From contig NZ_CP016177.1 in assembly GCF_001677275.1 (NCBI RefSeq), forward strand, positions 1,550,001-1,614,000: a DNA stretch of 64,000 nt, written 5' to 3'. The DNA is from Vibrio breoganii (GTDB taxonomy: Bacteria; Pseudomonadota; Gammaproteobacteria; Enterobacterales; Vibrionaceae). Position 1 is the stretch's first letter, and each line of letters starts with the position of its first letter. Positions 5,046 through 63,140 of the stretch are shown here, in pieces. Position numbers and translations under genes: made by a program. A model generated the notes under the pieces. The model was not told where the DNA came from. It did no database searches and saw nothing but the letters and a program-made list of their open reading frames with translations.

Positions 5046-6047
5046 TTAGTCGTTAAAGCCTTCCAGCACTATCTTTCCGCGTGCTTTTTGAGACTCTAAA
5101 AGCGCATGTGCTCGCTTCAGATTTGTCGCGTTGATCGCGCCAAAGTGCTCTCCTAGAGTGGTTTTCACCTCTCCAGAGTCGATCATTGTTGCCACCTTTG
5201 CTAAGATCTCATGCTGCTTTTGCATGTCGTCGGTTTCAAACATCGAGCGGGTATACATAAACTCCCAGTGCAAGGACACACTCTTTGGTTTAAGCGCTCG
5301 AATATCAAAAGACGAAGGGTCATCAATCAAGCCAAATTGACCTTGTGGCTTTATGACCTTCATAACTTCAGGCATGTGCTGTTCGGTATTGTTGAGACTC
5401 ACCACATAATCGACACAATCATTCATCCCAAGTTGCTCACTCATGGATTGGTTGTGATCAATCACCTGATCTGCGCCAAGCTGTTTTAGCCACTCCACAG
5501 AGGCAGGACGCGAAGCGGTCGCTATCACCTTCAAGTTAGTGAGCTTTTTCACTAGCTGGACCATAATTGAACCTACCCCGCCCGCAGCGCCGATGATAAG
5601 AATGCTTTGATTTGCTTCTGTATTAACTTTTAGGCGGTCAAACAACATCTCCCAAGCGGTTAACGTAGTCAAAGGCAAGGCTGCAGCCTGAGACACGCTC
5701 ACGGAAGTTGGAGCTAGACTGGCAATGCGCTCATCCACTAATTGAAATTCAGCATTGGTACCAGAGCGCGTAAGATCCCCCGCATACCAAACAAGGTCGC
5801 CAACGTTAAACAAAGACACTTGATCGCCTACCTCTTCGACAATACCCACCGCATCCCAACCGATCACTTTATAGCCGGACTCTGGAGCCACATTGGCACG
5901 TATTTTGGTGTCTACCGGGTTGACGGAAATAGCTTGCACCTTAACAAGTAGATCCCTGCCTGCTGCATTGGGTTTATCGAGCGTGATGTCCTGTAGTGAC
6001 GCTTCATTGTCGATAGGTAGGTTTACTTGATATCCAACTGCCTTCAT
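5046..6047 (-). CDS. Zinc-type alcohol dehydrogenase-like NADPH:quinone reductase (MDR family)
   Basis: This 333-residue cytosolic oxidoreductase belongs to the medium-chain dehydrogenase/reductase superfamily. The GroES-like domain (about 1-130) contains AISVNPVDTKIR, typical of the quinone-oxidoreductase branch. The Rossmann domain carries IIGAAGGVGSIMVQL (about 150-165) for NAD(P)H. No structural or catalytic zinc cysteines are visible, so it is likely a zinc-free reductase. It is divergent from a LysR regulator with a short shared promoter, which suggests local control. The substrate is unknown; reduction of quinones or reactive enones is the usual family inference. Confidence 0.85.
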   Translation of the reverse strand: MKAVGYQVNLPIDNEASLQDITLDKPNAAGRDLLVKVQAISVNPVDTKIRANVAPESGYKVIGWDAVGIVEEVGDQVSLFNVGDLVWYAGDLTRSGTNAEFQLVDERIASLAPTSVSVSQAAALPLTTLTAWEMLFDRLKVNTEANQSILIIGAAGGVGSIMVQLVKKLTNLKVIATASRPASVEWLKQLGADQVIDHNQSMSEQLGMNDCVDYVVSLNNTEQHMPEVMKVIKPQGQFGLIDDPSSFDIRALKPKSVSLHWEFMYTRSMFETDDMQKQHEILAKVATMIDSGEVKTTLGEHFGAINATNLKRAHALLESQKARGKIVLEGFND

Positions 6048-60170: not shown

Positions 60171-60192
60171 CCACGTTCATGCCGTATATGAA

Positions 60193-60227
60193 AAAAGAGG
60201 TAGATGCATTAGCACCTACCTCTTTCT
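60193..60227. terminator. Bidirectional terminator between arfB and the saccharopine dehydrogenase
   Basis: AAAGAGGTAG and CTACCTCTTT pair around a 12-base loop. A-runs and T-rich flanks on both sides fit the converging genes. Confidence 0.82.
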
Positions 60228-60255: not shown

Positions 60256-61329
60256 TTACGCTTCAGCCAACACCGACTTCTCAGCGGAGTAGTAAAACTC
60301 TTCCGCTCTAGCCCAGATACCTTCTGGATCTTTACCTTGGGTAAGGTCAATCAAGTGCGGTAGCAACTGGCCTGCAAAGTCTTCACTGCTCTCTTTTGGC
60401 AGGACGGTTGGCAGGTGGTCTACGGCTTGTACGCGAACACCTTCAACTACTGAGTCAATAATTGGCTTGGTGAGCTTAGTGCACTGGTTGTAGATCCTGA
60501 TTGGGTTATCAGGGTTGTTTGGATCGCAGCTTACGTCACTGATCATGCTTAGGCGTGGTGATTCGCCTAAGCTCTCTTTAGTGAGGAATGGAGGCGTACC
60601 TTCTGCAAGGTATGCACAGTTCACTAAGATATCGTAGTCATTGATTGCGGTGAATGGACCACCGGCTTTGGTTTCTTCGATATCCCAGCCTTGTGCTTGA
60701 AGACCAAGGTCTGTGAATAGATCCATTGCGCCTTTACCACAGCGGCCGAACTGACCGATAACCAATACCTTTGGTGCTTGCTCGGCGCTCTTTAACTGCT
60801 CACCTAGTACAGCTAGATACTCAGAGCGGTCGGCATAGCTTTCAACGGCTGGGTAAACATCACTGCTTTGTGTGTGATGAACATAACCTGAAAGACCAAT
60901 TGCCGCGCCCACATAGCCTGCCCAGTAGCCAAATGCACATACACGGCGGCCTTGTTCATCACGCAAGAATTCAAGGTCTAGAACCTGACCACTGCCCTCT
61001 TTAAAACGAGAAAGGATCTGAACGGCTTCGTCTTGCCCTTTAAAAGCGTGAGCAAAGTAGATGTGTTTGTGCTTAAGGGCAAAGCTTTCTTCTGCCAGCT
61101 CTTTTAGACCAAGAATATAAGCGTGCTCTGGAGCATCTACCCAAGAGTGTGTTTCCACCAGCTGACAGCCTACATCGGCGTAAGCTTGGTCTGGAAAGAT
61201 ACGCGTTTCACTGTGTTCAACAGAAATCTCAGCACCCGCATCAATCAATGCTTTTGCGCCAGAGGGAGTCAGTGCAGTGCGACGTTCTCCTGGTTTTACT
61301 TCATCGCGAAGCCAAAATAGTGTTTTCAT
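60256..61329 (-). CDS. Saccharopine dehydrogenase, L-lysine-forming type (Lys1-like)
   Basis: The 357-residue protein matches the fungal LYS1 family, which splits saccharopine to lysine and 2-oxoglutarate with NAD+ (reversible). The N-terminal part resembles alanine dehydrogenase/transhydrogenase (WLRDEVKPGERRTALTPSGAKALIDAG). FAHAFKGQDEAVQ, DLEFLRDEQGRRVCAFGYWAGYVGAAIGL and the NAD-site VLVIGQFGRCGKGAMDL follow. It lies 16 bases after an NhaC-family transporter gene controlled by a lysine riboswitch, so its expression should fall when lysine is abundant. This supports a lysine-forming role. Bacteria usually make lysine by the diaminopimelate route, so the substrate source is open. Confidence 0.88.
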   Translation of the reverse strand: MKTLFWLRDEVKPGERRTALTPSGAKALIDAGAEISVEHSETRIFPDQAYADVGCQLVETHSWVDAPEHAYILGLKELAEESFALKHKHIYFAHAFKGQDEAVQILSRFKEGSGQVLDLEFLRDEQGRRVCAFGYWAGYVGAAIGLSGYVHHTQSSDVYPAVESYADRSEYLAVLGEQLKSAEQAPKVLVIGQFGRCGKGAMDLFTDLGLQAQGWDIEETKAGGPFTAINDYDILVNCAYLAEGTPPFLTKESLGESPRLSMISDVSCDPNNPDNPIRIYNQCTKLTKPIIDSVVEGVRVQAVDHLPTVLPKESSEDFAGQLLPHLIDLTQGKDPEGIWARAEEFYYSAEKSVLAEA

Positions 61330-61345
61330 TTCTTAAAATTCCTTC

Positions 61346-62845
61346 TTATACAGCAGGCACGGCGCGCTGGATCCTACCCTGTCGACGTACCATAAAGGTA
61401 ATGAGTGCAACTTGAAGAATTGCAATAGCTAGGATCGTGTACGGGCTACGAGTTATCTCTGCTAGCATAAAGCCAACTGACGCTGTAACAGCAGTCAAAA
61501 TTGCATACGGGAACTGGGTTCGTACGTGAGAGACGTGATCACAACCTGTCGACATTGAGCTCAGAATTGTCGTATCAGAGATAGGCGACGTATGGTCACC
61601 TAGCATACCACCACTTAGAGCTGCGCCAATACAGATGATTGGGTCAGCGCCTAGTGCGGAAGCCACTGGTACAGCAATTGGGATCAAGATAGCAAATGTG
61701 CCCCACGATGAACCTGTCGCTACCGATATAAAGCTACCGATAATGAAGATGACTGCCGGCAACAAGAATACAGGCAGGCGGTCGTTCATCACTTGGCTGA
61801 TGTAATCACCGGTACCCAATGTTTTACAGATATCGCCGAGTGTCCAAGCCAGTAGCAAGATCATCAAGATCAGCATGATGCGCTGCATGCCCGCTACAAA
61901 GGTATTGAACGCAGTAGAAGCGGTCATTGTCTTGGTGTAGGCGTAGTAGCCAATCGCCGTAATGGACGCAATCAAATAACTCGTACCAAGACTTGCACGA
62001 ATCACTGGACCATTAATGGTGCCATGCAGATGGTAGTTGTAAGTAAATAGCGCAATCAAAGAGCCAAACAGCACCCCTAGCGGAAGAATAATCAACGTCA
62101 TAGATGCTGACTTACCTTCTGTGCTTTTCGGCTGTACTTCTTCGACATCAGCAGACAAACGCGCTTTGGCTTCCGCCTCCGCCATTGGGCCCCAGTCTTT
62201 TTTCAGCATCGCATACACAGGCACACTGAACAGTGTCAGTAAGGCATAAAGCTGGTAGGGAATCACTTGCAAGAAGGTGGTAAAGCCATCTACTTGCTGG
62301 CCCATGTTGCTGTACGCATTCTCAATCAAGCCCTGTGAGTACACGCCCCAGCTAATGATAGGGATTAGCACGCACACGGGTGATGAGGTAGAGTCGATAA
62401 TAAAGGCCAGCTTCTCACGGCTTAGTTTTAGCTTGCTAAAGATTGGCGAGAACATGGGTCCTAAGATAAGCGAGTTACCCGAATCGGTAAAGAACACACC
62501 GATACCCGTTGCCCACGTCGCCACCTGCGCCTTTAAAGGCGATGAAATATAGCGTGTCGCCATAGTGGAGAACGCTGTCATCCCGCCGCTTTGCTCTACA
62601 AGGTAGATAAAGCCAGAGATGATGGTAATAACAATAATGATTTGCGCATTAGTAGTTTGAGCGAGTTGGGCAAACGGACCGTCCGTCAAAAACATCAATG
62701 CGGTGTCTACAGGGTTACCCTGAGTGATGATCAACATACCACTTATCACGGCAACGCCGAGGGCCAAAACAACATGGCGCGTGGTGAACGCCAAAATCAA
62801 TGCCAATATAGCGGGAACGATGGATAGCAATCCATAATCAGCCAT
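61346..62845 (-). CDS. NhaC-family transporter, probable lysine-related (LysW-like)
   Basis: The 499-residue inner-membrane protein has about 11 helices and the NhaC family pattern: FFTDSGNSLILGPMFSPIF, DSTSSPVCVLIPIISWGVYSQ, SVATGSSWGTFAILIPIAVPV and GDHTSPISDTTILSSMSTGCDH. NhaC members are usually sodium/proton antiporters, but those behind lysine riboswitches were proposed to import lysine (called LysW). The riboswitch at 62955-63140 and the saccharopine dehydrogenase gene downstream make a lysine or saccharopine substrate likely. TGGAG lies about 10 bases before the ATG. Confidence 0.88.
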   Translation of the reverse strand: MADYGLLSIVPAILALILAFTTRHVVLALGVAVISGMLIITQGNPVDTALMFLTDGPFAQLAQTTNAQIIIVITIISGFIYLVEQSGGMTAFSTMATRYISSPLKAQVATWATGIGVFFTDSGNSLILGPMFSPIFSKLKLSREKLAFIIDSTSSPVCVLIPIISWGVYSQGLIENAYSNMGQQVDGFTTFLQVIPYQLYALLTLFSVPVYAMLKKDWGPMAEAEAKARLSADVEEVQPKSTEGKSASMTLIILPLGVLFGSLIALFTYNYHLHGTINGPVIRASLGTSYLIASITAIGYYAYTKTMTASTAFNTFVAGMQRIMLILMILLLAWTLGDICKTLGTGDYISQVMNDRLPVFLLPAVIFIIGSFISVATGSSWGTFAILIPIAVPVASALGADPIICIGAALSGGMLGDHTSPISDTTILSSMSTGCDHVSHVRTQFPYAILTAVTASVGFMLAEITRSPYTILAIAILQVALITFMVRRQGRIQRAVPAV

Positions 62846-62954
62846 TCGTAAAATACTCCAAAAATGAAAAAAGAATCGTATTAGAGGAAGGCTGTATTAG
62901 TGAGCACTGATAGACAATAGACTGGCGTTAAAGCAATAGAAAAGATGCAAGCGC

Positions 62955-63140
62955 ATGACTGTTGTAGCTCCCCATCCCGACAGAGTCGAAGATGACAGTG
63001 TTATTCTTATTTAGAACAACCCCAGCAATGCGAGTGACCATCTACACTGCTTCGGCATCGACTCCTTTCGTTAAGCTTCAATGGGGCGTCAACCTCCACT
63101 CAACTACTCTTAGGCGATGCGCCTCTACGTATCATCGAAG
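62955..63140 (-). ncRNA. Lysine riboswitch (L box)
   Basis: On the minus strand the region reads GTAGAGGCGC, AAGAGTA, GAAAGGAGTC, GATGCCGAAGCAGTG, CATTGCTGGGGTTG, CACTGTC and GGGATGGGGAGCTAC in order, the conserved L-box elements of the five-helix junction. P1 closes with GTAG (63125-63128) and CTAC (62964-62967). Several segments match the E. coli lysC leader closely. A TCGAAGAA/TTCTTCGA hairpin lies just upstream. The expression platform, the roughly 110 bases before the transporter ATG, has no clear intrinsic terminator, so control may act on translation. Confidence 0.93.

What the first reader, a model, noticed from the sequence alone, without database searches (positions are those of the whole stretch)
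60256..63140. Lysine riboswitch controls an NhaC transporter and a fungal-type saccharopine dehydrogenase
The minus-strand leader carries the conserved L-box core in correct order, followed by an NhaC-family transporter and, 16 bases later, a Lys1-like saccharopine dehydrogenase. A lysine riboswitch turns genes off when lysine is plentiful, so both genes should serve lysine supply. NhaC proteins behind L-boxes were proposed as lysine importers (LysW). Adding an enzyme that makes lysine from saccharopine suggests a scavenging route: import of saccharopine or a similar adduct, then release of lysine and 2-oxoglutarate. This would be separate from the diaminopimelate pathway. The opposite direction (lysine breakdown) is less consistent with riboswitch logic.
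Basis: partly seen in the sequence, partly recalled or inferred. Interest (0 to 1): 0.88.

Follow-up and report, generated by a model that had tools for sequence, protein, structure and literature searches.

The report
Lysine-switched transporter and saccharopine dehydrogenase pair
In some marine bacteria an RNA sensor for lysine sits in front of a two-gene unit, a membrane transporter and a yeast-like enzyme that can probably release lysine from saccharopine, which suggests, but does not prove, a way of salvaging lysine from a breakdown product made by animals and other organisms.

Summary
A strong lysine riboswitch (RF00168, 106.8 bits, 63135-62957, minus) precedes an NhaC-type transporter and, 16 bases on, a full-length homologue of yeast Lys1 with the key residues kept; a terminator hairpin closes the unit. 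The trio recurs in 13 species of Vibrio, Photobacterium and Ferrimonas, so it is not chance, but it is rare: 14 of 296 sampled Vibrionaceae carry the full-length enzyme, 10 of those 14 the trio. The transporter label is wrong: this NhaC is not LysW. The genome's other L-box precedes a LysW; the trio's NhaC lies in another clade, whose members found here all sit beside Lys1, with or without an L-box. The genome has lysA but no Lys9 was found. NAD-type cofactor residue, usual riboswitch logic and the missing Lys9 favour saccharopine to lysine (salvage). Against certainty: three Photobacterium species keep Lys1 after losing transporter and L-box; masking of the ribosome site was no better than shuffles in 9 of 11 leaders; nothing shows activity or transport. 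Searches of the held papers showed no report of an L-box on a saccharopine dehydrogenase. New variant of a known kind; salvage about 45% likely.

The parts
62957..63135 (-). Lysine riboswitch (L-box) aptamer
   Evidence: RF00168, 106.8 bits, full model 1-182, E 1.8e-27; falls with LysW-type rather than lysC-type aptamers in a tree of 39 L-boxes, split 100/100
62846..62956 (-). Presumed expression platform: pyrimidine tract CCUUCCUCUA (62891-62882), Shine-Dalgarno GGAG (62859-62856); CAGCC (62894-62890) can pair with GGCUG in codons 1-3 of the transporter
   Evidence: Read from the sequence and folds; no terminator-like site listed here by a simple scan; masking no better than shuffles for this leader (114 of 200 shuffles as low)
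61346..62845 (-). NhaC-family transporter of a Lys1-linked subfamily, 499 aa (not LysW)
   Evidence: PF03553 186 bits; tree and AU test
61330..61345 (-). 16-base gap with likely ribosome-binding site AAGGA (61344-61340)
60256..61329 (-). Lys1-type saccharopine dehydrogenase (predicted NAD+, L-lysine-forming), 357 aa; R17, K76, H94, K97, R129 match yeast R18, K77, H96, K99, R131
   Evidence: phmmer E 4e-75; alignment; model Z 46.8 to 2q99
60188..60226 (-). Terminator-like hairpin after the two genes
   Evidence: -23.1 kcal/mol, z -8.67, 0 of 200 shuffles as stable; not listed by the scan

Best explanation
A lysine-repressed salvage unit. When lysine is scarce the unoccupied L-box lets the two-gene message be translated; the NhaC-type carrier imports saccharopine (or a close N-epsilon-carboxyalkyl-lysine), driven by Na+ or H+, and the Lys1-type enzyme oxidises it with NAD+ to lysine and 2-oxoglutarate. 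When lysine is plentiful, lysine binds the aptamer, the ribosome site is masked and the unit is shut off. Shown here: aptamer, gene order, conservation, homology, intact active site, NAD-type residue, no Lys9 found, lysA present. Inferred: direction of the reaction, the carried substrate, the coupling ion, and the off mode of the switch.
For: Trio conserved in 13 species. NhaC and Lys1 go together even without an L-box: the Lys1-linked NhaCs form one clade (99/96) with a second deep branch of pairs (G049, G157, G087, G304), and the 11 best NhaC matches in 296 Vibrionaceae (47% identity or more) all lie beside Lys1. Transporter and enzyme therefore probably share a substrate or product. In G079 a different importer, an amino-acid ABC system (binding protein nearest to 4z9n), lies beside Lys1. 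Yeast K77, H96, K99, E122, R131 are kept in 39 of 40 aligned rows (yeast and window included; the other row was wrongly cut). The window keeps the yeast Asp ('WDI') where, by my reading, the human NADPH-using reductase has Ser/Arg; PMC9490328 says that NADPH use pushes that enzyme towards saccharopine (passages). No Lys9 found: the only PF16653 hit in the genome lies beside a gene that looks like carboxynorspermidine decarboxylase, so no second step for degradation or de novo synthesis is seen. L-saccharopine has been measured in sea cucumber gut (PMC12596727, passages).
Against: P. frigidiphilum, P. indicum and G360 lost NhaC and L-box but keep an intact Lys1 (dN/dS 0.11-0.27, from few differences, in the 7 of 15 pairs computed), so the enzyme seems useful without this carrier. 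Vibrio AM-375-E20 and the G049/G304 branch have the pair without an L-box at the locus. No tool tested activity, direction or transport. Masking of the ribosome site was no better than in shuffles in 9 of 11 leaders, the window's included. Lys1 relatives elsewhere sit in what look like natural-product clusters, so the family is not tied to lysine supply. The authors of PMC12596727 link gut saccharopine to lysine breakdown by vibrios, which would fit the reverse reaction.
Confidence: 0.45

Rival explanations
1. Two separate lysine-supply genes in one operon: the NhaC carrier imports lysine itself (working like LysW), and Lys1 recovers lysine from saccharopine that arrives by another route, such as general amino-acid or peptide importers.
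For: L-box NhaCs are usually taken for lysine transporters (PMC5584792 section 12). Lys1 persists without NhaC in three Photobacterium species. The L-box of the trio falls with LysW-type L-boxes.
Against: The genome already has an L-box LysW and the trio's NhaC is of another clade. The NhaC-Lys1 pairing in two deep branches speaks for a shared compound.
Confidence: 0.2
2. The enzyme acts on another N-carboxyalkyl amino acid (an opine-like compound), and lysine is not its natural product; the L-box reports general nitrogen or amino-acid state.
For: An octopine/nopaline-type dehydrogenase gene ends about 600 bases before Lys1 in G096 (nearest solved relative 1bg6). Relatives in Streptomyces and Paraburkholderia lie beside ATP-grasp genes.
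Against: Active-site residues match yeast Lys1, the model superposes on the saccharopine-bound yeast enzyme 3uh1 at Z 44.4, and a lysine sensor is hard to explain without lysine as substrate or product.
Confidence: 0.15
3. Reverse direction: lysine and 2-oxoglutarate are joined to saccharopine, as a store, osmolyte or nitrogen sink, and the L-box is an on-switch here.
For: L-boxes on lysine-breakdown genes are said to act positively in some bacteria (PMC5584792 section 13). Lys1 lies beside a Lys9-like gene in G041, G061 and G134, as in a full saccharopine pathway. The platform was not shown to be an off-switch. Saccharopine rose with vibrios in sea cucumber gut (PMC12596727).
Against: No Lys9 found in the window's genome and an NAD-type cofactor residue. 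Lysine-induced saccharopine breakdown in bacteria is described for LKR/SDH with AASADH (PMC7253579, passages), a different gene set. An on-switch was not specifically modelled.
Confidence: 0.13

Closest known systems
Lysine riboswitch (L-box, RF00168) upstream of lysW (NhaC family), Vibrionaceae and other bacteria
   Same: Same aptamer class, LysW-type aptamer, NhaC-superfamily gene first in the unit
   Different: The transporter belongs to another NhaC clade and is followed by a Lys1 gene; a LysW stands apart in the same genome
Yeast Lys1, saccharopine dehydrogenase (NAD+, L-lysine-forming, EC 1.5.1.7)
   Same: Full-length homology, 40% identity over the superposition, fold, active-site residues and NAD-type Asp
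   Different: No sign of an alpha-aminoadipate pathway here: no Lys9 found, lysA of the diaminopimelate route present; paired with a transporter and an L-box
Lys1-Lys9 gene pairs in the same order (G041, G061, G134)
   Same: Lys1 homologue of 43-47% identity
   Different: Partner is a Sacchrp_dh_C/NADP protein, no NhaC beside it, no L-box at the locus; outside the clade of NhaC-linked Lys1
Lysine catabolic genes kal/kce under L-boxes in Clostridia and Fusobacteria (PMC5584792)
   Same: An L-box on lysine-metabolism enzyme genes
   Different: Other pathway, other enzymes, said to be positively controlled (section 13 read)

Membership tests
Lysine riboswitch RF00168 | Sequence and structure match above the curated score | tested here: met
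   106.8 bits against 30, full length
Lysine riboswitch RF00168 | Lysine-dependent control of the downstream gene (off mode) | tested here: inconclusive
   Ribosome site pairs with an upstream tract in folds, but 9 of 11 leaders no better than shuffles; L041 1/200 and L044 4/200; no terminator listed in the leader by a simple scan
Saccharopine dehydrogenase Lys1 (EC 1.5.1.7) | Full-length homology and fold | tested here: met
   E 4e-75; Z 46.8, rmsd 1.6 over 355 residues
Saccharopine dehydrogenase Lys1 (EC 1.5.1.7) | Acid-base residues K77 and H96 and substrate arginines | tested here: met
   K76, H94, R17, R129 in the window protein. K77/H96 role seen in a title in the reference list of PMC9490328; roles of the arginines recalled
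Saccharopine dehydrogenase Lys1 (EC 1.5.1.7) | Activity on saccharopine with NAD+ | not testable with these tools
   Needs an enzyme assay
LysW (L-box NhaC lysine transporter) | L-box upstream of an NhaC-superfamily gene | tested here: met
LysW (L-box NhaC lysine transporter) | Belongs to the LysW protein clade | tested here: not met
   28.8% identity to the own-genome LysW; one clade of L-box NhaCs rejected, AU p 0.0115
NhaC Na+/H+ antiporter equivalog TIGR00931 | Score over the curated cut-off | tested here: not met
   46.7 bits against 370; the general Pfam family PF03553 is met
Complete saccharopine pathway (Lys1 plus Lys9) | Lys9-type gene in the genome | tested here: not met
   Single PF16653 hit in G000, adjacent to a weakly LysA-like gene, read as carboxynorspermidine dehydrogenase and decarboxylase (naming inferred)

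The most novel reading that the evidence does not exclude
A dedicated bacterial salvage route for saccharopine: a distinct NhaC subfamily is a saccharopine importer and a stand-alone Lys1 frees lysine from it, under direct lysine control by a riboswitch. This would give a substrate for this NhaC subfamily and a role for the yeast-type enzyme outside the alpha-aminoadipate pathway.
Probability: 0.4. Interest if true: 0.75.

Novelty: new variant of a known kind. Interest (0 to 1): 0.6.

Why it matters
The function of NhaC proteins behind L-boxes is said to be unknown (PMC11477304, passages). A conserved partner enzyme with a known reaction gives a concrete, testable guess for one subfamily. If true, it adds saccharopine, a lysine breakdown intermediate of animals and plants, to the nutrients that marine bacteria salvage, and shows the yeast-type lysine-forming enzyme used alone in a cell that also has the diaminopimelate route.

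Tried and rejected
Considered and rejected: (1) that the NhaC is LysW (tree and AU test). (2) That the enzyme is an alanine dehydrogenase or transhydrogenase, which share its N-terminal Pfam domain: those NCBIfam models score far under cut-off and yeast Lys1 is clearly nearest by sequence and fold. (3) That it belongs to an opine-type zincophore cluster: PMC7438024 (passages) treats CntM and yeast saccharopine dehydrogenase as different enzymes; znuCBA-type genes lie near the pair in G049 and G157, but the gap in L168 holds Zur-like palindromes (read by eye), so I did not take them as part of the unit. (4) That the genome carries a Lys9.

Tried without gain: the NhaC model with ten rows had pLDDT 43 and was not searched. 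Shuffle tests of the platform and of an antisequestor duplex were mostly negative (for the duplex L041 had 6 of 300 shuffles as good, L038 33 of 300, the other nine 83 or more). The terminator scan did not list the hairpin, so its silence about the leader is weak. The first NhaC tree had two wrongly cut rows (L133, L119) and four rows left out; it was rebuilt with rows re-cut by BLAST; the AU test was run after the first tree had been seen, and the L-box LysW rows other than L178 are cut short by the ends of their loci. In the Lys1 tree row L182 was wrongly cut and forms a false long branch; L164 is a fragment; both stayed in. The dN/dS script stopped after 7 of 15 pairs on two identical sequences, and two of the seven repeat others because L174 and L175 are the species of L042 and L043. 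Neighbours of Lys1 in L163, L164 and L165 gave no clear context, and those of the three class-level hits were not studied.

Text searches for the trio gave nothing on it: 1 of 1 listed; 20 of 168 listed; 20 of 31; 5 of 5; 1 of 1; 15 of 82. For saccharopine in marine settings: 12 of 7,863 listed; 20 of 128. The survey PMC5584792 has no 'saccharopine' in its main text, but its supplementary table, which lists operons, could not be opened, so it may list the P. profundum locus.
Full report
What is there. On the minus strand the window holds, in order, a lysine riboswitch aptamer (63135-62957; RF00168, 106.8 bits, full model), a 111-base stretch, a 499-aa NhaC-family transporter (62845-61346; PF03553), 16 bases with an AAGGA site, a 357-aa Lys1-type enzyme (61329-60256) and a terminator-like hairpin (60226-60188; z -8.67).

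The enzyme. Its best solved relative is yeast saccharopine dehydrogenase Lys1 (E about 4e-75 over residues 6-346). An AlphaFold model (pLDDT 92) matches yeast Lys1 structures at Z 44-47, then the human lysine-ketoglutarate reductase domain at Z 30-33, then amino-acid and alanine dehydrogenases and transhydrogenases at Z 22-28 (Foldseek gives the same first two groups). In an alignment of 40 rows (yeast included), yeast K77, H96, K99, E122, R131 and F135 are identical in 39, the exception being a wrongly cut row (L182); R18 is identical in 38 (L164 is a fragment). K77 and H96 are the acid-base residues by the title of a paper in the reference list of PMC9490328; the other roles are recalled. 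The window keeps the Asp of the 'WDI' motif (D216), which I take for the yeast Asp that PMC9490328 says binds the NADH ribose and that is replaced by Ser/Arg in the NADPH-using human enzyme; that paper says NADPH use drives saccharopine formation (passages). NAD use therefore leans towards lysine formation, by inference.

Conservation. Of 41 loci found in genome contigs, 18 (L033-L050) match 331 or more residues at 40% identity or more. Of the 13 of these from Vibrio, Photobacterium and Ferrimonas, 11 have the NhaC gene directly before Lys1 and 10 have the L-box before that. The exceptions are L040 (a Vibrio MAG; pair, but no L-box even at E 1) and L042/L043 (P. frigidiphilum, P. indicum; Lys1 without NhaC or L-box). 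The other five (L046-L050, other bacteria) have neither NhaC nor L-box at the locus. In 296 Vibrionaceae genomes, 26 match at E 0.001 or better: 14 with a full-length enzyme, one (G458) with a broken remnant, 11 with weak partial hits (best E 8e-9), taken for other dehydrogenases. Of the 14, 10 have the trio (window; G557, G490, G393; G405; G403; G369, G411, G407, G420 by identity of contig length with L035, L036, L038, L037), three (G360, G373, G362) have Lys1 without NhaC or L-box and one (G304) has the pair without an L-box. At order level 10 of 295 genomes have an enzyme hit at E 1e-80 or better (47 of 295 at 0.001); at class level 4 of 369 at 1e-30.

The transporter is not LysW. The window's genome has two L-boxes. 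The other one precedes a 531-aa NhaC, followed by a His leader. Of the 30 L-box loci returned from the best, 27 lie before relatives of that protein (75-83% identity) and three before a second type (50%); the trio's NhaC is 27-33% identical to all 30. It is 40-43% identical to 19 other NhaCs (L112-L130), none of which has an L-box within 1.5 kb (less where a contig ends). In a tree of 39 rows the Lys1-linked NhaCs, with or without an L-box, form one clade (99/96), apart from LysW (100/100), and holding all L-box NhaCs of the tree together is rejected (AU p 0.0115; the tree is not rooted and the test was run after a first tree had been seen). Independently of how rows were chosen, the 11 best NhaC matches in 296 Vibrionaceae (47% or more) all lie beside Lys1. 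The trio's aptamers, on the other hand, fall with LysW aptamers and not with lysC aptamers (100/100), though the 13 are not one clade there (L044 falls with LysW, L041 is unresolved). So an L-box of the transporter type stands before a different NhaC; whether by transfer of the leader or by old shared descent with losses, I cannot tell.

Contexts of relatives. The pair NhaC-Lys1 without an L-box nearby occurs in G049, G157, G087 and G304; in G304 a LysE-type gene follows. Lys1 lies beside a Lys9-like gene in G041, G061 and G134, beside an amino-acid ABC importer in G079, near an octopine-dehydrogenase-like gene in G096, and on plasmids in Streptomyces and Paraburkholderia beside ATP-grasp genes, with a Lys9-like gene in Streptomyces. 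The family is thus used in several ways; a transporter next to Lys1 seems to have arisen at least twice with unrelated transporters.

Metabolic setting. lysA is present over cut-off in 22 of 23 genomes tested (G096 has only a weaker hit). The only PF16653 hit in the window's genome (C1:1249737) lies beside a weakly LysA-like gene at C1:1250625, the pattern expected of carboxynorspermidine dehydrogenase and decarboxylase (naming inferred). The same holds for eight more of the ten trio genomes among the 23; the tenth, G407, has no PF16653 hit. So no Lys9 partner is seen: the enzyme can neither complete de novo synthesis from aminoadipate nor pass saccharopine on by that route. Only lysA of the diaminopimelate route was tested.

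The switch. A simple scan lists no terminator-like site between aptamer and transporter start, but it also missed the hairpin after Lys1. In folds of the stretch after the aptamer the ribosome site is paired with an upstream tract in the 11 leaders examined, as expected for a translational off-switch, and by eye the tract resembles the complement of the aptamer's GUAGAGG. But against shuffles that keep the site, masking was unusual only in L041 (1 of 200) and L044 (4 of 200), and not in the window (114 of 200). The off mode therefore rests on the general rule for L-boxes; a survey states that L-boxes before kal/kce genes act positively (PMC5584792 section 13).

A result against a strict pair. 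In P. frigidiphilum, P. indicum and G360 the stretch before Lys1 still holds short NhaC remnants (82-95% identity to the intact P. profundum gene), yet Lys1 is intact, with dN/dS 0.11-0.27 in the pairs computed, from 8-17 non-synonymous and 12-28 synonymous differences. The enzyme seems to be of use without this carrier and without lysine control.

Most likely function. The simplest reading that joins lysine control, the transporter, an NAD-type lysine-forming enzyme and the absence of Lys9 is salvage: import of saccharopine or a near relative and release of lysine. I put this at about 0.45. L-saccharopine has been measured in the gut of a sea cucumber, where its authors link it to vibrios breaking down lysine (PMC12596727, passages), which could also be read in favour of the reverse reaction. 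Rivals are listed with their tests.

Novelty. Searches of the held papers for L-box or lysine riboswitch together with saccharopine showed no report of this link among the papers listed (also 31, 32, 72; lists partly capped). The main survey notes a second L-box lysW in P. profundum SS9 (passages) but does not mention saccharopine in its main text; its supplementary table was not readable here. The RNA class, the enzyme family and the transporter superfamily are all known; the combination, the separate NhaC subfamily and the likely route are new to me. The first proposal of LysW (Rodionov and others, 2003) is recalled, not read (one search failed).

Noticed in passing
L178:3861-5456 (G000:C1 about 1134860-1136455): The own-genome LysW matches the NCBIfam Tet(35) 'tetracycline efflux' model over 1-368 of 369 positions at 668 bits (cut-off 750), with residues 165-530 only; Tet(35) looks like the C-terminal two thirds of a LysW-type protein.
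   Followed up: no
L224, L225 (lysC of G000 and G557): The lysC gene has no L-box in the window's genome or in G557, although G553, G364, G490, G403, G393 and G360 have one before an aspartokinase-like gene (recognised by eye).
   Followed up: partly
L176 about 5073-5255 (G458:C2:584072-584254): A Vibrio genome carries only a broken Lys1 remnant, with group II intron RNA signals some 0.8 to 3 kb away.
   Followed up: no
L042 4841-5000, L043, L173: NhaC and L-box missing before an intact Lys1, short NhaC remnants left.
   Followed up: yes
L168 6141-9370, L195 1542-4278: Genes for a ZnuCBA-type importer follow the NhaC-Lys1 pair in G049 and G157, with palindromes like a Zur site (by eye) in the gap of L168; G049 also has a second lysA-like gene about 7.5 kb on.
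   Followed up: no
L204:482-1438 (minus): In G134 an L-box precedes a gene that looks like dapA from its sequence (no family search made).
   Followed up: no
L227, L228: Plasmid-borne Lys1 homologues in Streptomyces lavendulae (with Lys9-like, ATP-grasp and MFS genes) and Paraburkholderia sabiae (with ATP-grasp and MFS genes) suggest use in natural-product pathways.
   Followed up: no
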